Of a stretch of DNA of 64,000 nt, positions 50,762-62,800 are shown in pieces (position 1 is the stretch's first letter; every line of letters begins with the position of its first letter). This DNA comes from Sedimentisphaera salicampi. Its GTDB lineage: Bacteria > Planctomycetota > Phycisphaerae > Sedimentisphaerales > Sedimentisphaeraceae. Where the stretch lies: NCBI RefSeq assembly GCF_002117005.1, contig NZ_CP021023.1:1426001-1490000 (forward strand), in the 5' to 3' direction. The notes below the pieces were generated by a model. That model was not told the DNA's origin. It made no database searches and saw only the letters and a list, made by a program, of their open reading frames with translations. The translations under genes were made by a program, and so were the position numbers.

Positions 50762-52927
50762 ATGTCCCGATTAGTAATAATATCAAACAGGCTTCCGGTA
50801 AATGTTACCAAGCAAGACGGGAAATTCGGATACAGAGACAGCGTAGGCGGCGTGGCTACGGGGATCTCTTCTCTCACCGACCACGGCGAGAAGATCTGGT
50901 TCGGCTGGCCGGGCATACCGGCAGAAGCTCTAACTGAAAGAGAAAAGAAAGAGGCCTCTGAAACGCTCTCGCAGAAAGGCTGCTATCCCGTATTTCTGTC
51001 AACAAGCCAGATAGACAACTTCTACTCCGGATTCTGCAACAGGACGATCTGGCCGCTTTTCCACTACTTCTCAGAGCTTTCGATATATGATGAATCGTTC
51101 TGGCAGGCATACAAATCATCCAATCAGCTTTTCTGCGATGAACTGATCAAGCACGTAAGCGAGGACGACTTCATCTGGGTTCACGATTATCAGCTTATGC
51201 TCCTGCCGGAGATGATAAGGGAAAAGCTGCCTGAGGCGCAGATAGGCTTCTTTCTGCACATACCGTTCCCCTCATTCGAGATTATGAGGGAGCTGCCCAG
51301 AAGAAGCGAGCTGCTCAACGGCATACTCGGGGCAGATCTAATCGGCTTCCATGAGTATGATTATGTGAGGCACTTTCTGAGCAGTGTTTACAGGATATGC
51401 GGCTGCGAGCACAACCTGAGCAAGCTTCAGATTGACAACCGCCAAATAAGGGTGGATGCATTCCCGATGGGGATAGACTACGAGAAATACGCCTCAATCC
51501 CCGCGAAATTCAAAAACAAGCCGGTTGAGGAAGAAAAGCCGAGGATAATACTCTCGGTTGACAGGCTTGATTATACAAAAGGCATCCCAAACAGGCTCGA
51601 GGCATACGAAAGCTTTCTCAGCAAATACCCCGAATATCACGGGAAGGTGCGTCTTGTTATGATTGCCGTGCCCACGAGGACGGAGGTAGAGGAGTATGCA
51701 AGCCTAAGGGAAACAATCGAAAAGGACGTTGGACGAATCAACGGCAAGTACAGCACTGTTGACTGGACACCGATTTCTTATATGTTCCGCAGCCTTCCTT
51801 TTGAAGAGCTCTCGGAATTCTACTACCGCGGGGATGTAGGGCTTATTACCCCCCTGCGAGACGGGATGAATCTAGTGGCGAAGGAATTTATAGCCGCCCA
51901 GAAGAACAAAGAACATCAGGCTGTTCTGATTCTCAGCGAGATGGCAGGGGCAGCAAGCGAGCTTTCAGAGTCTATAGTGATCAATCCGCACCACAAAGAC
52001 CAGATCGTGGAAGCGATAAAAACCGCTCTCGATATGCCCCAGGAGGAGAGGGCAAAGAGAAACAAAATGATGCAGGGAAGGATCTCGAGATACACAGTCG
52101 GCCGGTGGGCAACAGAGTTCATAGTTAGCCTGAAGGAGATAAAGAAAGAGCAGGGAAGGCTCAGAACCAAATACTTCACTCGTCAGCATCAGCAGAAGGC
52201 TGTGCAGGAGTATAACAAAGCTGAAAAACGGCTCATTATGCTCGACTACGACGGCACCCTCGCTCCATTCTCAAGACTGCCCGAAGACGCAATGCCCTGC
52301 AAAGATATAATAGAAACGCTCAAAGGGCTCTGCGCGAATGAGAAGAACACCGTTGTGGTAATAAGCGGAAGAGATAAAGACACGCTCTCCAACTGGCTCG
52401 GCAAGCTGCCCCTGAATCTCGTTGCAGAGCACGGGGCATTCTATAAGAGCGCAGGGGGAGACTGGGAATCAGCCGTGAATGCTGAAAACAACTGGAAAGA
52501 GATGATAAAGCCCATTTTGGAACTAACTGTTGACAGAACCCCAGGCTCGCTTATAGAGGAAAAGTCTTCCTCGCTTGTATGGCATTTCAGAAAGAGCGAG
52601 CCGGATCTTGCAAAGCTGCGTACACAGGAGCTTAAGGATACGCTGATGATGATGGCTGCGAATCTCAATATCGGGGTTTTCGAGGGCAACAAGATCGTTG
52701 AAGTTAAGCCGGTGAGCGTGAATAAAGGTCAGGCCGCAGGATACTGGATAGCAAAGGAAGACTGGGCTTTCATTTTCTGTGCAGGCGACGACTGCACAGA
52801 TGAGGATATGTTTGAAGCTATGCCTGAAGGAGCTGTTTCCTGCAAGATCGGCAAAGGCATATCTGCAGCGAAATATAAACTCAATAAGCCCCAGCAGCTT
52901 CGTGAATTTCTAAAAAATCTTAAATAA
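50762..52927 (+). CDS. otsA-otsB: Bifunctional trehalose-6-phosphate synthase/phosphatase
   Basis: The 721 residues show two enzymes in one chain. Residues about 1-465 are a GT20 synthase: 'LVIISNRLPVNV', 'VHDYQLMLLPEMIREK', 'SVDRLDYTKGIPNRL', 'LITPLRDGMNLVAKEF'. Residues about 485-721 are a HAD phosphatase with nucleophile Asp495 and Asp497 in 'LDYDGTLAP', 'VVISGRDKDTL', and 'CAGDDCTDEDMFEAM'. Together they make trehalose from UDP-glucose and glucose-6-phosphate, a compatible solute useful in saline or stressed habitats. AAAGGGG lies before the ATG. A GH15 gene follows 23 bases later, so the two form an operon. Confidence 0.97.
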   Translation: MSRLVIISNRLPVNVTKQDGKFGYRDSVGGVATGISSLTDHGEKIWFGWPGIPAEALTEREKKEASETLSQKGCYPVFLSTSQIDNFYSGFCNRTIWPLFHYFSELSIYDESFWQAYKSSNQLFCDELIKHVSEDDFIWVHDYQLMLLPEMIREKLPEAQIGFFLHIPFPSFEIMRELPRRSELLNGILGADLIGFHEYDYVRHFLSSVYRICGCEHNLSKLQIDNRQIRVDAFPMGIDYEKYASIPAKFKNKPVEEEKPRIILSVDRLDYTKGIPNRLEAYESFLSKYPEYHGKVRLVMIAVPTRTEVEEYASLRETIEKDVGRINGKYSTVDWTPISYMFRSLPFEELSEFYYRGDVGLITPLRDGMNLVAKEFIAAQKNKEHQAVLILSEMAGAASELSESIVINPHHKDQIVEAIKTALDMPQEERAKRNKMMQGRISRYTVGRWATEFIVSLKEIKKEQGRLRTKYFTRQHQQKAVQEYNKAEKRLIMLDYDGTLAPFSRLPEDAMPCKDIIETLKGLCANEKNTVVVISGRDKDTLSNWLGKLPLNLVAEHGAFYKSAGGDWESAVNAENNWKEMIKPILELTVDRTPGSLIEEKSSSLVWHFRKSEPDLAKLRTQELKDTLMMMAANLNIGVFEGNKIVEVKPVSVNKGQAAGYWIAKEDWAFIFCAGDDCTDEDMFEAMPEGAVSCKIGKGISAAKYKLNKPQQLREFLKNLK

Positions 52928-52950
52928 CAACACAACCATTTGAGGAATCA

Positions 52951-54753
52951 ATGCAGAATCTCGACTACGGAATTATAGGCAACTGCAAGAGCGCGGCATT
53001 AGTTAGCAAAGACGGCAGTATAGACTGGTGCTGCCTTCCGGATTTTGATTCACCTTCGGTATTTGCGAAGATACTCGACAAGAATATCGGAGGGAGTTTT
53101 TCTTTTGAAGTTTCAAACAACTACCAGATAACCCAAAAATATATCGATAAAACAAACGTCTTGGCCACCGAATACAGCAACGGTGAAGATGCGTTTTGCG
53201 TTTACGATTTTATGCCCAGATACAAAACTGAGGCAGGATTTTATCACTGTCCGCCAGAGGTTGTCAGATTCATCCGGCATATTAAAGGCCAGCCTGAGGT
53301 TGTAATCAAATGCGACCCTCGCCCCGCCTACGCCAAGGACGAAACGGTAGTAAGCAAGAACGGCGAATATATAAAATACTCCACAAAGAAAGGTGCATAC
53401 GAGTCTGTTTATTTATACACGGATTTCAGCTTTGATGATGTAATCGCCTCCAAGCCTGTAAAGATAACCACAAACCACTTCCTTCTGCTGGGCTACAATC
53501 AGAAGCTTTTCCGCCCTGACTTAGACTGGATTGAACTGGAATACCAGCGAACGAGAGTTTACTGGATGGGCTGGGTTTCTAAGACAAAGGTTTACACAAA
53601 CTATCAGAAAGAGGTTGAGAGAAGCTCGCTTGTGCTCAAGCTGCTAGCATATCAGAAAACAGGGGCGATTCTCGCAGCCGCCACGACAAGCCTCCCCGAA
53701 TCAATCGGCGAGGTTCGCAACTGGGACTACCGCTACTGCTGGCTCAGAGATGCCTCGATGACAATCAGCATTCTCACAAGGCTCGGACACTACAACGTTG
53801 CAAGGCGGTTCCTCAGATTCCTGCTTGACATAATCCCGTACAAAAACGAAAAGATTCAGATAATGTATCCGATAAACCACCGCGGCGTGCTGAAAGAAAA
53901 AGAGCTGCCCTGGCTGGACGGGTATGAGAATTCAAAGCCGGTGCGCATAGGCAACGCTGCAGCAAGGCAGAAACAGAACGATATCTACGGGATTGTGCTC
54001 GATGCTATATGGGAAAGCCTCGTATTCTTCCACGACTCCATAGACAACAAAGAAGACCTATGGACAGTTACCAGAACACTCGCAAGGCATATCAAAAACA
54101 ACTGGCAAAAGCTCGATTCAGGGATTTGGGAATTCCGCACCGAGCAGAAACACTTCACCTTCTCAAAGCTCCTTTGCTGGGTTGGAATGGACAGGGCTGC
54201 CAGGATAGCAAACTTCTTCGGGAAAAGCGAAGAAGCAAACAGCTACATAAAACTGCGTGAGGTGATAAAGAAAGACATCCTCAAAAAAGGCAGAGACCCG
54301 AAAACCAACACTCTCACCCAGTTTTACGGCTCAAATTCTATCGATGCGGCTAACCTTCTCGCTAATGAATACGGCTTTCTTCAGGCCAGCGACCCAACTT
54401 ACGTAAATACTGTGCTTGAAACTCATAAAGACCTATGCAGAGACGGGCTGATGTATCGATATAAGACATCCGACGATTTCGGCACTCCGAAATCCAGCTT
54501 CACCACCTGCACCTTCTGGATGATTAAGAGCCTTTTCCTTATAGGGAGGCGAAAAGAGGCAACTGAAAACTTCGAAAGGGTGCTCAGCTACGGCAATCAT
54601 CTCGGGCTCTTCAGCGAAGATATAGATTTTCAAAGCAAGCGTCTGCTCGGGAATTTTCCGCAAGGTTACTCCCATATCTCGCTGATAGATACCGCACTCA
54701 CGATTTCTGAAAGCCCGTACTGGCTCAAGAACGCAGACGACTTCAAGCCGTAA
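52951..54753 (+). CDS. GH15 glucoamylase/trehalase-type hydrolase
   Basis: The protein has 600 residues and no signal peptide. The N-terminal 'YGIIGNCKSAALVSKDGSIDWCCLPDFDSPSVFAKIL' and the barrel motif 'NWDYRYCWLRDAS' define bacterial GH15. The general acid is probably Glu394 in 'GIWEFR' and the base Glu556 in 'FSEDID', followed by 'LGNFPQGYSHISLI'. Members are glucoamylases, trehalases or glucodextranases. Placement 23 bases behind the trehalose synthase fusion suggests that this one acts on trehalose or a related alpha-glucoside. GAGGA precedes the ATG. Confidence 0.93.
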   Translation: MQNLDYGIIGNCKSAALVSKDGSIDWCCLPDFDSPSVFAKILDKNIGGSFSFEVSNNYQITQKYIDKTNVLATEYSNGEDAFCVYDFMPRYKTEAGFYHCPPEVVRFIRHIKGQPEVVIKCDPRPAYAKDETVVSKNGEYIKYSTKKGAYESVYLYTDFSFDDVIASKPVKITTNHFLLLGYNQKLFRPDLDWIELEYQRTRVYWMGWVSKTKVYTNYQKEVERSSLVLKLLAYQKTGAILAAATTSLPESIGEVRNWDYRYCWLRDASMTISILTRLGHYNVARRFLRFLLDIIPYKNEKIQIMYPINHRGVLKEKELPWLDGYENSKPVRIGNAAARQKQNDIYGIVLDAIWESLVFFHDSIDNKEDLWTVTRTLARHIKNNWQKLDSGIWEFRTEQKHFTFSKLLCWVGMDRAARIANFFGKSEEANSYIKLREVIKKDILKKGRDPKTNTLTQFYGSNSIDAANLLANEYGFLQASDPTYVNTVLETHKDLCRDGLMYRYKTSDDFGTPKSSFTTCTFWMIKSLFLIGRRKEATENFERVLSYGNHLGLFSEDIDFQSKRLLGNFPQGYSHISLIDTALTISESPYWLKNADDFKP

Positions 54754-56054: not shown

Positions 56055-58340
56055 TCAATCCATCCTTTCCGCAGAGATCTCGCCCGCGTTCGGATCTGCT
56101 GTTTTTTGTTCGAATCCGGGAATCTTCAAAACAACTTCAGGTGCTTTTCCGTTCCAGTTTGCTTTGAATTCAGCAGAAACTGAATTCTCTTCAAAATGCA
56201 GCGTAAGATTGATTGTTCCCCAGAGAGTTGGGGCAGGCCCTGCGCTGATAATCTCACCTGCCTTTGTCCAATCAGGATGGATGCCGGCTCCGAGAATAAG
56301 CTGATTATTTGTTTTCTGCTCATAAACAAGACAGCTTCTCATATAGTTCACCCATTCAGCTGCCGCCCAGATATGCTGGCCGTCTCCCATGCAGCCGCCT
56401 TCGGTTATCGGGTGTACCGCCTCCGGCCACTGCCCTGTGGGGCTGGCAAGCCTTTCAAGCGTTTCAGCGAGCTCGAAATGCCTTTTATCTCCGGCTCTCA
56501 GGAGAATCTGAGCTATGTGCAGAGTTAGGTATGGGTTTATCCCCGAATGAGAGATATCAAGGAAGAATCCGTCCTTTACCCTGCAGCTGTTCATTAGAAA
56601 TTCCACCGTAGCAAGAAGCTGGGAGTCTTCTGGATCGACAAGCTGGAGGGGATATCCGCATACAACAGAGCCTACTGCACCTGCATCAAGCCGTCTGTAA
56701 GGCGATACGGGAATCGCCCGCTGATTCAATTTTGCACACACCTTCTCAATGCTTGAATCTATTGCCCTGCGGAGTGTACGTGCCTGCTGATGATACTTTT
56801 CCGCTTTGCTTATCATCCCCGAAGATTCTGCAATCTCAGCAGCGCAGTGCAGACCGGCAAGCGCCCAGAAATCGTCCCAGTAGTAATGGTCGTTCGGGCC
56901 GAAGTGCTCTGCACTGAAACCTGCCGGCAGCAGGCCTGCGTGCATTGAGTCTTTATCCGGGTTGGTGCATTTCCTGCAGATCCAGTCTGCGGCTTTGCAT
57001 ACCGATTCGAAAATATCCGCTGAAAGCGGCCGGCCGGTCATCTTCCAGTTTCTGTGGATGATCCATATTGCCTGACCGTTGGAATCCCATTCGCCGTCCT
57101 GAGAGCGGAAATAGCCGCCTGTCTTCTGTCTTGAAGGGTATGAATTCAGCACCGGAGCAGCGAGATGGGAGAGGTTTGCGCATAGCAGGGAATCCAGAAT
57201 GAACGAGGCATCCCTGAACCAGAAGCGTTTGTAAGTAAACGGGCCAGGATAAACATCCTCGCCTGCAACGTGAAGTGCAACGCTTCTCAAGGCAGTTTCG
57301 TAAAGTCTTTGCTTCTTCTTATCGGGAATAACTATCCTGCACCTGCCCTTGAGCGAATCTTTCCATGAAATAGCCTTGCCCGCCGGCTTGTTGCCTTTCG
57401 GGGAAGACCTGTCGCCAAAGAAGGTTTGTTTTTTCAGCGGGATAAAAAGATTCATATCGAGCTGGCCGTCTTCATCCGGCTCGAAAACAGCGGCCGCTGT
57501 GGCCATGCCCACCTTGCATTTAACTGAGTCTTCAGTTTCGCCGGACTTGCCGGCAAGCCTTGTTGAGACATCGCCGTCTGCATAACGCTGCATATAGTTG
57601 TTATCAACCCGCCTGTCAAACAGGACTGAGGTTTTGTCGTTAACCTCCCATCTGCGGGATGAATCATCCAGCTTTACCGTATGCACGAAGCTCACGCCTT
57701 CGGGATTGTATGGACGAAGGGAAACTGCAAGCCTTTCAGAAGAACGAACACGCAGCTTCACATCGCAAACATATTCGCCCTTTCTCTGACGAACCTGAAC
57801 AGCGGAGATAATTTTGCCCGAATCAAACTCGGACTTTGTAACCACAGCGAGGTTGCCGAAAAAGCAGAGCCTCTGCATTGTTTTCCCGTCAGTCTTTGAA
57901 GACGAAAGCACATTGCCCTGTTTATCGACAAGCCAAAAATCCAGAGACCAGCCGTCCCAGTGGGGTGTTACCATACCAGCCGGATCTACGATGGGCAATT
58001 GCCCCAGCCCGGGCAGGCCTGCTGCTGTCCAGTTACGATGGGTTAGGTTGATGTACGTTAGAGAAAACGCGCTTGGAACGAATGACTTATCAGAGGGATT
58101 AAACTGCCTTTGAATCCAGTAAGGCCATACCCAGTCTGAATTCTGCGGGATCGCCCTGCTGTTGATCAGACCGCGTGAATGAAAAACTATATTATCTCTT
58201 ATCAGCTCGATAGGACCGGCCACTTCAGAAGGCTGAGAAAACCTCTGAAAATAAGACCACAAAACTACAGGGTCTAAAAATCCGTGTCTTTTAGCTGCGT
58301 ATGATATTAGAAATTTCCATGGAAACCATTTCAACCACAT
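56055..58340 (-). CDS. (Alpha/alpha)6-barrel glycoside hydrolase-like protein of unknown family
   Basis: The protein has 761 residues and no signal peptide. The N-terminal ~330 residues are beta-rich ('WPYWIQRQFNPSDKSFVPSAFSLTYINLTHRNW', 'SLRPYNPEGVSFVHTV'). The C-terminal half has six-hairpin features: 'TYKRFWFRDASFILDSLL', 'GEWDSNGQAIWIIHRNWKM', 'HYYWDDFWALAGLHCAAEIA', 'DAGAVGSVVCGYPLQL', 'TGQWPEAVHPITEGGCMGDGQHIWAAAEW'. The acidic residues in 'FRDAS', 'QWPEA' and 'GCMGDGQH' are candidate catalytic ones. I could not name a GH family. The gene is coupled to a GT4 gene next to the trehalose operon, so a role in osmolyte or alpha-glucan turnover is plausible. AAGG lies 6 bases before the ATG. 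Confidence 0.7.
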   Translation of the reverse strand: MWLKWFPWKFLISYAAKRHGFLDPVVLWSYFQRFSQPSEVAGPIELIRDNIVFHSRGLINSRAIPQNSDWVWPYWIQRQFNPSDKSFVPSAFSLTYINLTHRNWTAAGLPGLGQLPIVDPAGMVTPHWDGWSLDFWLVDKQGNVLSSSKTDGKTMQRLCFFGNLAVVTKSEFDSGKIISAVQVRQRKGEYVCDVKLRVRSSERLAVSLRPYNPEGVSFVHTVKLDDSSRRWEVNDKTSVLFDRRVDNNYMQRYADGDVSTRLAGKSGETEDSVKCKVGMATAAAVFEPDEDGQLDMNLFIPLKKQTFFGDRSSPKGNKPAGKAISWKDSLKGRCRIVIPDKKKQRLYETALRSVALHVAGEDVYPGPFTYKRFWFRDASFILDSLLCANLSHLAAPVLNSYPSRQKTGGYFRSQDGEWDSNGQAIWIIHRNWKMTGRPLSADIFESVCKAADWICRKCTNPDKDSMHAGLLPAGFSAEHFGPNDHYYWDDFWALAGLHCAAEIAESSGMISKAEKYHQQARTLRRAIDSSIEKVCAKLNQRAIPVSPYRRLDAGAVGSVVCGYPLQLVDPEDSQLLATVEFLMNSCRVKDGFFLDISHSGINPYLTLHIAQILLRAGDKRHFELAETLERLASPTGQWPEAVHPITEGGCMGDGQHIWAAAEWVNYMRSCLVYEQKTNNQLILGAGIHPDWTKAGEIISAGPAPTLWGTINLTLHFEENSVSAEFKANWNGKAPEVVLKIPGFEQKTADPNAGEISAERMD

Positions 58341-58633: not shown

Positions 58634-61561
58634 CTAATAAGTCAGCTCTTCTGCCTGCTCAACAAAATCCTTAATATCTACCCTCTCATCGCTGTTCAGG
58701 TCAGCATTATAACAGTCATAATAAGTCGAACACTCGCCGTTAAGCCAACTGGCAGCTAAAAAAAATATGTCATCCATATCTACCTGTCCGTCGTTATCAA
58801 GATCTTCCTGTGTCGAATATACCTCTATTTCGTAAATACTCGGCGAAAGCAGAGCATTTATTACATACAATCTCATGCGATCTGATGAGACTGCTGGAAA
58901 GATGTCTGTCTTGTCAGATCCGATCAACCCCCCAAAAAAGGCATCTTTCCAGCCCCCATCATAATACTGCAATTTATAGCCCTGAATCCGCTCTCTGAAC
59001 TCTTTTATTTTGACCTTGTTAAACGTTACCTTCCGTCCAAAATCCAAAGAAAGCCACGAACCATTGAGCTCACCTGCGCCCGCATTCCACCTTGTTTCCG
59101 GATCTCCGTCAATACTCTTCTTTGGTGAGTAATCCGAATCCCAGCTGCTTGAAGCGCTCGTCATCGCACCGGTCGCCAGGTTTACCTTGGGTTCAGGCCT
59201 GATCGGCTTTGAAATTTCACTTTTGGCAAACCCGTCTATCACCAGCATACTGTTGCTGCTCGCAGAATTCTTCTGGTCGGAAACAACCACGCTCACGTTA
59301 TGATTGCCAAAGCTGAGATTATTGGATTCATACAAAAGCTCATGCATTTTCATACTGGGATTATAACAGTCCACACTGTCGATTTTATGCGGGCCAACAT
59401 AAATATTCGCTATCCCCCCGTCAGCTCTCCTCGAACCGAATATCCGAAAACCACTGCCCTCAAAGCTGAAACTCAGAGTACCTCCAGCCTGATCATTGTA
59501 CATCGCGCTGTTCCCGTAGAGCTCATCGCTGTTAAAACTCCTCCATCCTGGACAGTAAACACTCTGGTCTTTGTCATCAACCATAGACCATCTGCCGATC
59601 GGTTTCACACTCAAATTATCAAACTGGTTGAGATCGAAACTGCTGCCAAAGCAGGCCTGACCAGCCTTTCGCCTGGTATCCTCTATCTCGCAGATTTTTT
59701 CCGAATCAAGATAGCACCTGATCTGGCCGTCTATAAATCGAATTTTCAGATTGTGCCATTTACTGCTGTCAAACCCGCCTTTACTGCCTCTTTCTAAAAC
59801 ATTATCATCCGCAGCCACATCATCATACGTTACCTTCCAGCTGCCGGCTTCACTGATCACAAAACAATACCCGCTCTTAACCTGATGATCGCCCTTCCTG
59901 CCGCCAACATATACAAACCCATCCTCGATAAAAACATCCGCGCTAAATTCATAATCCCGCCAAGTCATATCGCCAAACAGGGACATCGCCGCTGACGGAT
60001 TCACCTGCGGCCACCAAAGATAACTCTCGTTCACCCTCGGCACGATCTGCTCCAAACACTTGCCTTCTCGACCGCCTTTACAAGCTGCCGTCTCGAATGT
60101 TCCCTGCATATCCGATAAATACTTTGCTGTCGCTCCGTCGTTATACTCCTCGAAGTCCTCGCTGTAGGGCATCGGAAAAGGTTCATAAGAAGGTATTGCG
60201 TTTGAAGGCTCACCCTTGCGCTGTCCCGCAGCAGTTGTTACCGAATACATCGCGTCAGGTAATGTATTCAGGGTAAAACTGTTGTTTGTTACCGTAATAT
60301 CCGCCGTCTTTACAAAGTGTCTGCTCGATGTTGTTCTCCACACGTGAACGGTATCCGCCGAAACTCCCGTTAGGTTAAACTCTAAAGTTTCAGGATTTTC
60401 ACTGTAAATTATCGTGCTCCAGTTATCAGTATCCGGGTCTTTTAAAGTAACATAATTACCCGAACCAGACAAATACCCGCACCCGTCTTTCAAATATTTC
60501 CAGCCGATTTCGGTAAATTGGGTATAATGAGCGACACCCCAAACTGCCGGGTAAATTTCATAATGATTCGACCAGGGTCGGTCCGCTTTTATTAACCCCG
60601 ACTTAGTCCAATTCACACCCTCAGCGCATCCGTCAACAACGTTCCAAACCTGCATATTGGTTATTTTGCCTTTAATGTAAAGCCTGTTCATCCGCTCCAC
60701 GATGCCGGTAGCCGCATTCCATGTACCATGTCCGGCAGTGTCCCCGCTGCTCCACAGCTTCTTGCCCGTATCAATGATTTCCTGTGAAGGATATGTGCAC
60801 GGAGCGTTACTTGGCTTCTGGTCGATATTATGTCCCCCGCAGGCATCGACCATCGGCTCATACTCCGGATGCGTCTGGAATACCTCGAATATCCTCCATG
60901 CCCACCAGCCCCCGTCAAGAAGCAGAATATTAAGGTCATAGCCATGAGAGTTCATGGTAGGGATAAAGGTATTTTTACACCACGAAAGGTTCTCCACGAT
61001 CTCATCGTAATCATTTATCGTTTCGGTTTTCGTAGGAGCTATCCAGTCCAGCTCCACACCCCATTCATTTTTGGCTTCATCCAAGAACGCAACAATATAA
61101 TCAGCCGTATCCTGTGAAAACTGGCCGGTAAACCAGTACGGAAACGCAAACAGCATACAATCCAGCACGATATCGGCATTACGGCTTTTAGCCTCTTTCA
61201 TCAGCCAGAATTCATAACCTCTCGAAACAGGATCACTAAGCTCATCTCTGGTTATTGCGTGAGATGGTTCCGCACCAGAGGTCGAATTAAACCCCGAACC
61301 GATCTCCACCCTCAAATGCTGCAGAGATGCACCGAAATTAGGTTTGAAAAGCATATCCAGTATATCACTGCGGTATGGCTCCTCGTAATCAATCAAAAGC
61401 CGCGAATTACCACCGGAACTCCACGCACCCATTCCGTCGAAACTCCTGCCCTCACTGGCACCATTCACATTGATAACCGCCGACCCGAAGGATGCAGTTA
61501 CAACAGACAACAAAACCGAAAGTATTGATAATAAATATTTTCTCATACTCCTGTTTCCCAT
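58634..61561 (-). CDS. Secreted GH59 (galactosylceramidase-like) homologue with lectin, F5/8C-like and dockerin modules
   Basis: The 975 residues have a signal peptide (MRKYLLSILSVLLSVVTASFGSA); the ATG at 61561 or 61546 may be used. Residues about 25-430 follow GALC closely: 'FDGMGAWSSGGNSRLLIDY', 'YRSDILDMLFKPNFGASLQHLRVEIGSG', 'GYEFWLMKEAKSRN', 'GKKLWSSGD', 'YPAVWGVAHYTQFTEIGWKYL'. The lectin-like part (about 445-640), a further sandwich, an F5/8C-like module (about 775-900) and a two-repeat dockerin follow. In human GALC the nucleophile Glu is in WSSED; here that position is Gly273. The acid/base NER motif is replaced by 'TKTET' (Glu180 nearby). It is either a binding protein or an enzyme with displaced catalysts. 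Confidence 0.85.
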   Translation of the reverse strand: MGNRSMRKYLLSILSVLLSVVTASFGSAVINVNGASEGRSFDGMGAWSSGGNSRLLIDYEEPYRSDILDMLFKPNFGASLQHLRVEIGSGFNSTSGAEPSHAITRDELSDPVSRGYEFWLMKEAKSRNADIVLDCMLFAFPYWFTGQFSQDTADYIVAFLDEAKNEWGVELDWIAPTKTETINDYDEIVENLSWCKNTFIPTMNSHGYDLNILLLDGGWWAWRIFEVFQTHPEYEPMVDACGGHNIDQKPSNAPCTYPSQEIIDTGKKLWSSGDTAGHGTWNAATGIVERMNRLYIKGKITNMQVWNVVDGCAEGVNWTKSGLIKADRPWSNHYEIYPAVWGVAHYTQFTEIGWKYLKDGCGYLSGSGNYVTLKDPDTDNWSTIIYSENPETLEFNLTGVSADTVHVWRTTSSRHFVKTADITVTNNSFTLNTLPDAMYSVTTAAGQRKGEPSNAIPSYEPFPMPYSEDFEEYNDGATAKYLSDMQGTFETAACKGGREGKCLEQIVPRVNESYLWWPQVNPSAAMSLFGDMTWRDYEFSADVFIEDGFVYVGGRKGDHQVKSGYCFVISEAGSWKVTYDDVAADDNVLERGSKGGFDSSKWHNLKIRFIDGQIRCYLDSEKICEIEDTRRKAGQACFGSSFDLNQFDNLSVKPIGRWSMVDDKDQSVYCPGWRSFNSDELYGNSAMYNDQAGGTLSFSFEGSGFRIFGSRRADGGIANIYVGPHKIDSVDCYNPSMKMHELLYESNNLSFGNHNVSVVVSDQKNSASSNSMLVIDGFAKSEISKPIRPEPKVNLATGAMTSASSSWDSDYSPKKSIDGDPETRWNAGAGELNGSWLSLDFGRKVTFNKVKIKEFRERIQGYKLQYYDGGWKDAFFGGLIGSDKTDIFPAVSSDRMRLYVINALLSPSIYEIEVYSTQEDLDNDGQVDMDDIFFLAASWLNGECSTYYDCYNADLNSDERVDIKDFVEQAEELTY

Positions 61562-61665: not shown

Positions 61666-62520
61666 CTATGTCAAGTGCCGGTTTAAGGTTGACAATTTTC
61701 TTTTTTTTCCTATTACGCTGCTGAATGCTCCGCCTCTGGTATTAGATATTCTAATGCTTGAAGCAGGCGGATTTTGAGTTTCGAAAAAAATATCGCAGAT
61801 TCGCGGCTGAAAAATTCCTCTCCGCCATTCCCATATTAAATATTTATCCTGTGAATCCTTGCCCCGCAGCAAAAGCGGTTCGGGGCTGTAAATCCTGTCA
61901 AAAAACCTCTGCGTAATCTGTGGATTATATGTGTCCACAGTTGTGAAAGTGTTTTCATACTCTTCGAGTTTGGCTTTTGGTAGTGAGTAATCCTTCCCTC
62001 CCTTCAGCACAAAAGCGTATCCGGAAGGCTCGTCCACATTACTCTTTTCTTTTCTTATTCTTTTAGTGACTGATTTTCGGACAGGTTCCTGTCTGGTTTT
62101 CGGGCAGGTACCTGCCTGATTTTCGGACTGGTCGGATTTTCCTACCGGTCGGGTTTTCAGACAGGTACCGGTCTGATTTTCGGACTGGTCCGTTTCCCCT
62201 ACCGGTCGGGTTTTCGGGCAGGTACCGGTCTGATTTTCGGACTGGTCGGTTTTCCCTACCGGTTCGGTTTTCGGGCAGGTTTTGTAAATGTTTGACTTCC
62301 CGATACCCTGCTGCTGAACCTCCAGAAGTCCTGCGTTTTTCAGCCTCTGAATAGAATCGCAAATCGTAGATCCGGCAAGCCCGCTTTTTTCCTGAAGCTT
62401 CCTTCTGCCCGGCCAAGCCTCGCCCTGATTTTCATAATTTTGGATAATCGCAAGGATTATCTTATCGCTTGCCCGCAGGTCTTTCCGTGCTGCTGTATCG
62501 GCATCTAATTTAAAGAACAT
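61666..62520 (-). CDS. Winged-helix replication-type protein with 57-bp coding minisatellite
   Basis: The start is ambiguous between TTG at 62526 and ATG at 62520, both behind AAGGAGG. Residues about 1-85 form a helix-turn-helix domain of the HTH_36/replication initiator type ('ASDKIILAIIQNYENQGEAWPGRRKLQEKSGLAGSTICDSI'). Next come three and a half copies of a 19-residue repeat (TGTCPKTRPVGKTDQSENQ). The last ~60 residues ('NPQITQRFFDRIY', 'GIFQPRICDIFFET') read through the kind of 'CGCAGATTCGCGGCTGAAAA' sequence that forms intergenic repeats elsewhere in the window, so the true tail has probably been replaced. It overlaps the excisionase-like gene by about ten bases. Probably a plasmid- or phage-derived remnant. 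Confidence 0.65.
   Translation of the reverse strand: MFFKLDADTAARKDLRASDKIILAIIQNYENQGEAWPGRRKLQEKSGLAGSTICDSIQRLKNAGLLEVQQQGIGKSNIYKTCPKTEPVGKTDQSENQTGTCPKTRPVGETDQSENQTGTCLKTRPVGKSDQSENQAGTCPKTRQEPVRKSVTKRIRKEKSNVDEPSGYAFVLKGGKDYSLPKAKLEEYENTFTTVDTYNPQITQRFFDRIYSPEPLLLRGKDSQDKYLIWEWRRGIFQPRICDIFFETQNPPASSIRISNTRGGAFSSVIGKKRKLSTLNRHLT
62089..62285 (-). repeat. 57-bp tandem repeat inside a coding region
   Basis: TGATTTTCGGACTGGTC recurs at 62117, 62174 and 62231, an exact 57-base spacing that keeps the reading frame. Each unit encodes a 19-residue, Lys-, Gln- and Thr-rich, probably disordered linker. Units differ by a few substitutions. Confidence 0.9.
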
Positions 62521-62800
62521 CTTCAATCCGCCTCCTTTTTATTCTCTGCTGTCTTTGCTGAAGCTCAGCATTTGCAAAGCAGAGGTTGAAATCGTATCTG
62601 TCTGGTGTTATCAGCCTGAATCGCTTTTGCCTCGCCTCCGCTGCCGTTTCAGCGAGGCTTGCTTTAACTGCCTCCAGTTCAAATTTGTATTTGCGTCCAA
62701 TCCTGAGACAAGGAATCTTCCCCGCCTCCACTTGCTCTTTGATCCAGCTGAGCGGCAAGTCCAGCTCATTTGCAATTTGGTTTATGTTTTTCAGTTTCAT
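62510..62800 (-). CDS. Excisionase-like small HTH DNA-binding protein
   Basis: The 96 residues start at the ATG at 62800 (a TTG lies 9 bases upstream). Residues about 1-50 are a MerR/excisionase-type helix-turn-helix: 'LKNINQIANELDLPLSWIKEQVEAGKIPCLRIGRKYKFE'. The C-terminal half is charged ('RQQRIKRRRIEDVL'). It ends by overlapping the winged-helix gene, so the two form a small operon of the kind found in integrated plasmids and phages. No integrase or attachment site was seen near it. Confidence 0.75.
   Translation of the reverse strand: MKLKNINQIANELDLPLSWIKEQVEAGKIPCLRIGRKYKFELEAVKASLAETAAEARQKRFRLITPDRYDFNLCFANAELQQRQQRIKRRRIEDVL

What the first reader, a model, noticed from the sequence alone, without database searches (positions are those of the whole stretch)
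60700..61080. GH59 galactosylceramidase homologue that appears to lack its catalytic nucleophile
The protein at 58634-61561 follows human GALC through many motifs, including the strand ending in K-K-L-W-S-S. In GALC the next residue is the nucleophile Glu (Glu258 of the mature numbering) in SSED; here the codon is GGG, giving SSGD (Gly273). The acid/base Asn-Glu-Arg motif is also gone, replaced by T-K-T-E-T with a possible Glu180 shifted by one residue. The fold, lectin part and dockerin are intact, so the gene is not simply decayed. It could be a binding protein for galactosides or a GH59 subfamily with a different mechanism.
Basis: partly seen in the sequence, partly recalled or inferred. 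Interest (0 to 1): 0.72.

Follow-up and report, generated by a model that had tools for sequence, protein, structure and literature searches.

The report
Galactosidase relative that lost its nucleophile
A secreted bacterial relative of the enzyme that is faulty in Krabbe disease has kept one of its two catalytic acids but lost the other, in the same form in two related species, so it probably now holds sugars instead of cutting them.

Summary
The core observation holds. The 975-residue protein at 58634-61561 (-) is a GH59 (galactocerebrosidase) homologue with glycine, Gly273, where 59 of 59 other GH59 rows, mouse GALC included, have the nucleophile Glu.

The second claim is wrong. The acid/base Glu is neither gone nor shifted: Glu180 lies in the acid/base column, Glu in all 61 rows. 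The one-residue offset from GALC is shared by 16 canonical bacterial relatives. What is lost there is the preceding Asn (to T179); W135 (to F138) and G317 (to N332) are also replaced.

An orthologue in a second species of the genus (about 86% identical) has the same residues, encoded partly by silently different codons. The barrel is under strong purifying selection (dN/dS about 0.05). Both genomes keep a canonical paralogue. So this is an old, maintained pseudoglycosidase born by duplication, not decay or sequencing error.

Best explanation: a secreted, lectin- and dockerin-bearing glycan binder that cannot do two-step retaining hydrolysis. The Gly/Glu pattern is the one reported for heparanase-2. 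An inverting or glycosynthase-like activity is not excluded; the structure models were too weak to show whether another carboxylate serves. New variant of a known kind; moderate interest.

The parts
58634..61561 (-). whole gene, 975 aa, nucleophile-less GH59 homologue
61481..61561 (-). N-terminal hydrophobic stretch, probable signal peptide (residues 1-27)
   Evidence: read from the sequence (MRKYLLSILSVLLSVVTASFGS); no predictor was run
60518..61441 (-). GH59 barrel domain, residues 41-348
   Evidence: PF02057 full length, E 3e-77; model of residues 28-448 matches GALC best, TM-score 0.71
61148..61150 (-). Phe138 in place of the galactose-binding Trp (GALC W135)
   Evidence: W in 59/59 others; contact of W135 from PMC4445328
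61025..61027 (-). Thr179 in place of the Asn before the acid/base (GALC N181)
   Evidence: N in 59/59 others; codons ACC and ACA in the two species
61022..61024 (-). Glu180, retained acid/base position (GALC E182)
   Evidence: E in 61/61 rows, this protein included
60830..60832 (-). His244, retained (GALC H237)
   Evidence: H in 61/61 rows
60821..60823 (-). Asp247, in both pseudo members; only the G042 relative has an acidic residue (Glu) at this place; untested candidate for a replacement carboxylate
60743..60745 (-). Gly273 in place of the nucleophile Glu (GALC E258)
   Evidence: E in 59/59 others; codons GGG and GGA in the two species
60644..60646 (-). Trp306, retained (GALC W291)
   Evidence: W in 57/59 others
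60623..60625 (-). Ala313 in place of a mostly conserved Tyr (GALC Y298)
   Evidence: Y in 50/59 others
60566..60568 (-). Asn332 in place of an invariant Gly in PWSGHY (GALC G317)
   Evidence: G in 59/59 others
59603..60106 (-). GALC-type lectin domain, residues 486-653
   Evidence: PF21708 E 2.8e-13
58814..59158 (-). F5/8 type C (CBM32-like) domain; Pfam match is residues 802-876, end of domain estimated
   Evidence: PF00754 E 8.5e-13
58664..58807 (-). dockerin-like domain, residues 919-966
   Evidence: PF00404; no cohesin family match in the genome

Best explanation
It is a pseudoglycosidase of family GH59. A galactosidase-type gene was duplicated before the two species of the genus split, and one copy kept the full catalytic set. 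The window copy lost the nucleophile (Glu to Gly273), the Asn before the acid/base (to Thr179), a galactose-binding Trp (to Phe138) and an invariant Gly of the PWSGHY motif (to Asn332). It kept the acid/base Glu180, Thr94, His244 and Trp306. Without a nucleophile no glycosyl-enzyme intermediate can form on that residue, so ordinary two-step retaining hydrolysis should not run. The barrel most likely binds a terminal sugar (a galactoside, or a substituted one that the remodelled pocket admits) without cutting it, in an exported protein that also has a GALC-type lectin domain, a CBM32-like domain and a dockerin-like end. Shown here: the replacements, their sharing by two species, the selective constraint, the canonical paralogue. 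Inferred: no hydrolysis, sugar binding, identity of the ligand, export.
For: 59 of 59 other GH59 rows have Glu, Asn, Trp and Gly where this protein and its orthologue have Gly, Thr, Phe and Asn. In GALC E258 is the nucleophile and E182 the acid/base; W135, T93, S261 and R380 hold the 3-, 4- and 6-OH, N181 and E258 the 2-OH (PMC4445328). The orthologue L048 has identical residues at all these places, with silent codon differences at Gly273 and Thr179. dN/dS in the barrel is 0.046 for the pseudo pair and 0.057 for the canonical pair; the barrel is the best conserved part (88% identity against 62% for residues about 660-915), which suggests the barrel itself is used. None of 46 family-conserved columns is changed in only one of the two pseudo members. 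Tree: pseudo pair 100/100, sister to the canonical pair of the same genus 100/99, with stem lengths alike (0.53 and 0.60). Precedent: heparanase-2 has Gly381 for nucleophile Glu343 and keeps the acid/base Glu, does not cleave heparan sulfate and binds it tightly (PMC12406646); pseudoglycosidases that bind glycans are known (PMC7828330).
Against: No binding or activity data. Trp135, Asn181 and Glu258 also hold galactose in GALC, so their loss could weaken rather than keep galactose binding. The acid/base Glu, useless to a pure binder, is kept (as in heparanase-2). The structure models have pLDDT under 50 around the pocket, so a replacement carboxylate cannot be excluded. The dN/dS values rest on dS above 1 and are rough.
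Confidence: 0.6

Rival explanations
1. It is still a glycosidase, but inverting: Glu180 is the general acid, and a water in the space left by the nucleophile is activated by another carboxylate (Asp247 after His244, or Asp310/Glu314 after Trp306).
For: The acid/base Glu is strictly kept. In GH97 a Gly in place of the nucleophile marks the inverting members, whose base sits elsewhere (PMC2670981). Asp247 is in both pseudo members and in the canonical rows only one has an acidic residue there, Glu in the G042 relative.
Against: Asn181 and Trp135, which grip the substrate, are lost too. Asp310 is shared with the canonical planctomycete members, so it is no specific replacement. Clan GH-A is defined by a common retaining mechanism (PMC6637243). 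Position of Asp247 could not be modelled.
Confidence: 0.14
2. The barrel is vestigial or only a scaffold: the lectin, CBM32 and dockerin domains do the work, or the protein regulates or competes with its active paralogue.
For: Several carbohydrate-binding domains are kept. Heparanase-2 inhibits heparanase-1 by competing for substrate or by contact (PMC12406646).
Against: The barrel is the most constrained part of the protein, and the replaced pocket residues are identical in both species. The two genes lie in different places and the pseudo gene shares no neighbours between the species.
Confidence: 0.15
3. It is a natural counterpart of the laboratory glycosynthases: with Glu to Gly and the acid/base kept, it transfers a sugar from an activated alpha-donor, or uses a small carboxylate such as formate in place of the nucleophile.
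For: Glu or Asp to Gly mutants of the nucleophile in beta-galactosidase (E361G) and GH97 (D415G) make oligosaccharides when rescued by azide or formate (PMC12018205). Gly273 with Glu180 is the same arrangement.
Against: Laboratory rescue needs high concentrations (2.4 M formate in one case) or donors not known in cells; N181 and W135 are also lost; no natural case was found in the papers searched.
Confidence: 0.05
4. Sequencing error, assembly error or a decaying gene.
For: None beyond the missing residue.
Against: Same residues in an independently sequenced species; open frame of 975 codons; low dN/dS; silent changes at the very codons.
Confidence: 0.01

Closest known systems
Galactocerebrosidase (GALC), GH59, clan GH-A
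   Same: Full-length sequence homology of barrel and lectin domain; acid/base Glu, T93, H237 and W291 kept; best structural match of the model.
   Different: No nucleophile (E258 to Gly), no Asn before the acid/base, W135 to Phe, G317 to Asn; extra CBM32-like and dockerin-like domains.
Canonical GH59 paralogue in the same genome (L051 12319-15258)
   Same: Same domain order and length (979 aa), about 49% identical in the barrel, one-residue longer acid/base strand.
   Different: Complete catalytic set (Asn-Glu and Ser-Glu-Asp); lies in a locus with a sulfatase, three LamG proteins and a sugar transporter that is conserved between the two species.
Heparanase-2 (GH79 pseudoenzyme, clan GH-A)
   Same: Nucleophile Glu replaced by Gly, acid/base Glu kept; arose beside an active paralogue (PMC12406646).
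   Different: Different family, animal protein, heparan sulfate ligand; binding is measured there and not here. I claim likeness of pattern, not membership.
Inverting GH97 enzymes
   Same: Gly where retaining relatives have the nucleophile (PMC2670981).
   Different: Different clan, alpha-glycosidases, calcium and known base Glu; no replacement base shown here.
Engineered glycosynthases (nucleophile Glu to Gly or Ala)
   Same: Same residue change with the acid/base intact (PMC12018205).
   Different: Laboratory mutants with artificial donors; here natural and with further pocket changes.

Membership tests
GH59 as a sequence family | Full-length homology to the GH59 barrel model | tested here: met
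   PF02057 260 bits, cut-off 27, profile 1-294 of 294
GH59 as a sequence family | GALC-type fold: (beta/alpha)8 barrel with beta-sandwich | tested here: inconclusive
   Model pTM 0.64; best PDB match is GALC with TM-score 0.71, but pLDDT under 50 in parts of the barrel
GH59 / clan GH-A retaining glycosidase | Nucleophile Glu at the end of strand beta7 | tested here: not met
   Gly273; Glu in 59/59 others
GH59 / clan GH-A retaining glycosidase | Acid/base Glu at the end of strand beta4 | tested here: met
   Glu180; Glu in 61/61 rows
GH59 / clan GH-A retaining glycosidase | Asn directly before the acid/base | tested here: not met
   Thr179; Asn in 59/59 others
GH59 / clan GH-A retaining glycosidase | Hydrolysis of beta-galactosides with retention | not testable with these tools
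   needs purified protein
Pseudoglycosidase | Homology to a glycosidase with loss of a catalytic residue, kept by selection | tested here: met
Pseudoglycosidase | No catalytic activity | not testable with these tools
   sequence only
Pseudoglycosidase acting as glycan binder | Binds a glycan in the former active site | not testable with these tools
   pocket residues T94, H244, W306 kept; no binding data
Inverting glycosidase (GH97-like switch) | A carboxylate placed to activate water on the far side of C1 | tested here: inconclusive
   Asp247 is a candidate by sequence; model too weak there
Cellulosome component | A cohesin partner for the dockerin in the same genome | tested here: not met
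   no PF00963 match in the genome, 18 dockerin matches

The most novel reading that the evidence does not exclude
A natural clan GH-A protein that still makes or breaks glycosidic bonds without a nucleophile, by inversion with a new base or by a glycosynthase-like transfer that the retained acid/base Glu180 supports.
Probability: 0.17. Interest if true: 0.8.

Novelty: new variant of a known kind. Interest (0 to 1): 0.45.

Why it matters
No GH59 protein without its nucleophile turned up in the papers searched here, and automatic annotation would call this one a galactosylceramidase. It gives a bacterial case with the same Gly/Glu pattern as heparanase-2, with the active paralogue in the same genome, so the steps from enzyme to pseudoenzyme can be studied in one pair. 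If a non-standard activity were found, it would be a natural version of the mutation chemists use to build glycosynthases.

Tried and rejected
Sequencing error or decay: rejected by the orthologue, low dN/dS and silent codon changes. Loss of the acid/base: rejected by the alignments. Viral contigs: two scans found no GH59 relative. Operon or neighbour clue: the pseudo gene's neighbours are not shared between the two species. Cellulosome: no cohesin. Paper searches for natural nucleophile-less relatives or GH59 pseudoenzymes found none, which is weak negative evidence because most subscription papers are not held.

Full report
What was checked. The gene at 58634-61561 on the minus strand encodes 975 residues. 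Its parts are a probable signal peptide, a GH59 barrel (PF02057, E 3e-77), a GALC-type lectin domain, an F5/8 type C domain and a dockerin-like end. Mouse GALC is the closest solved structure by sequence (E 1.6e-66). The host genome is one contig of 3.19 Mb; the class and family pattern of its relatives resembles Sedimentisphaera (Phycisphaerae), but that name is my inference from literature on the class, not a tool result.

The nucleophile. In GALC E258 is the nucleophile and E182 the acid/base (PMC4445328). The strand that ends KKLWSSED in GALC ends KKLWSSGD here, and codon 273 is GGG. I collected GH59 relatives from 14 named genomes and from whole-genome searches over about 1,970 genomes in all, and aligned 61 rows: this protein, its orthologue, 58 other bacterial rows (two of which, L123 and L124, come from one open frame, and some of which are near-identical) and mouse GALC. 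All 59 others have Glu at the nucleophile, Asn and Glu at the acid/base motif, Trp at W135 and Gly at G317. Only this protein and its orthologue have Gly, Thr-Glu, Phe and Asn.

The acid/base. Compared with GALC (DYIGIWNE) there is one residue more between the Asp and the Glu, but the same is true of 16 canonical bacterial relatives, among them the paralogue in the same genome (DFVGAPQNE) and the Opitutae and Flavobacteriia proteins (DWVAAAENE). Against these, DWIAPTKTE aligns without a gap and Glu180 falls in the acid/base column, which is Glu in all 61 rows. So one of the two catalytic acids is kept; its Asn neighbour, which holds the galactose 2-OH in GALC, is not.

Age and selection. The sister species in the genus (G001) has an orthologue, L048, 86% identical over the barrel, with all the same replacements. 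Codons differ silently at Gly273 (GGG, GGA) and Thr179 (ACC, ACA). Nei-Gojobori dN/dS in the barrel is 0.046 for the pseudo pair and 0.057 for the canonical pair; dS is above 1, so these are rough, but dN is plainly low. The barrel is the most conserved part of the protein. Of 46 columns at least 95% conserved in the family, five are changed in both pseudo members (138, 179, 203, 273, 332) and none in only one of them. Three of the five are residues that contact galactose or catalyse in GALC; the enrichment over other conserved columns is modest (Fisher p = 0.02, small numbers). In the tree the pseudo pair and the canonical pair of the genus are sisters (100/99), each on a long stem of similar length (0.53 and 0.60), so the duplication predates the species split and the losing copy did not evolve faster overall. 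Long branches elsewhere in the tree make deeper joins unsure, but not this one.

Context. The canonical paralogue sits in a locus with a sulfatase, three LamG proteins and a sugar transporter, in the same order in both species. The pseudo gene has different neighbours in the two species: trehalose and alpha-glucan genes in the window, and an oxidoreductase and lpxD-like gene in the sister (names from reading the sequences, not searched). It therefore stands alone. The genome has 18 dockerin matches but no cohesin match, so a cellulosome is not indicated.

How it most likely works. Without a nucleophile the covalent step of retaining hydrolysis has no residue to run on. Two readings follow. The first, which I favour, is a binder. 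Heparanase-2, also of clan GH-A, has Gly for the nucleophile and keeps the acid/base Glu; it does not cleave heparan sulfate and binds it tightly (PMC12406646). Klotho and YKL-39 are other pseudoglycosidases that bind ligands (PMC7828330). Here T94, H244 and W306 of the pocket are kept, while W135, N181, E258 and G317 are replaced, so the pocket has been remodelled and the ligand may be a modified galactoside. The second is a changed chemistry: GH97 has inverting members with Gly in place of the nucleophile and a base elsewhere (PMC2670981), and nucleophile-to-Gly mutants work as glycosynthases or after rescue with azide or formate (PMC12018205). Asp247 is the only carboxylate that stands out by sequence near the pocket. 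The AlphaFold2 models did not resolve this: the barrel model matches GALC best (TM-score 0.71) but has pLDDT under 50 around the pocket.

Verdict. The missing nucleophile is real, shared and maintained; the missing acid/base is not real. It belongs to GH59 by sequence, fails the defining catalytic test of a retaining clan GH-A glycosidase, and fits a pseudoglycosidase. I would not annotate it as a galactosylceramidase. No GH59 case of this kind was found in the papers searched, which is weak evidence of novelty.

Noticed in passing
62070-62280: A tandem array (57-base unit, 3.3 copies, 88% matches) inside the minus-strand ORF 61666-62526 that has weak helix-turn-helix/DnaD matches; the protein repeats a PVGKTDQSENQTGTCPKTR-like unit.
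   Followed up: partly
50762-54753: Trehalose gene pair: a fused trehalose-phosphate synthase/phosphatase (GT20 plus phosphatase) followed by a GH15-type protein related to archaeal trehalases.
   Followed up: partly
56055-58340 (-): A 761-aa protein with no Pfam match and only a weak NCBIfam match to oligosaccharide amylase, directly downstream of the GH59 gene.
   Followed up: partly
L003 946-3048 (own genome): A GH30-like barrel with ricin-type lectin domains that also scores over the GH59 cut-off in its second half; GH59 and GH30 models overlap here.
   Followed up: partly
L034-L044, L047: The Flavobacteriia and Opitutae GH59 proteins carry about 150 residues before the barrel that the planctomycete proteins lack.
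   Followed up: no
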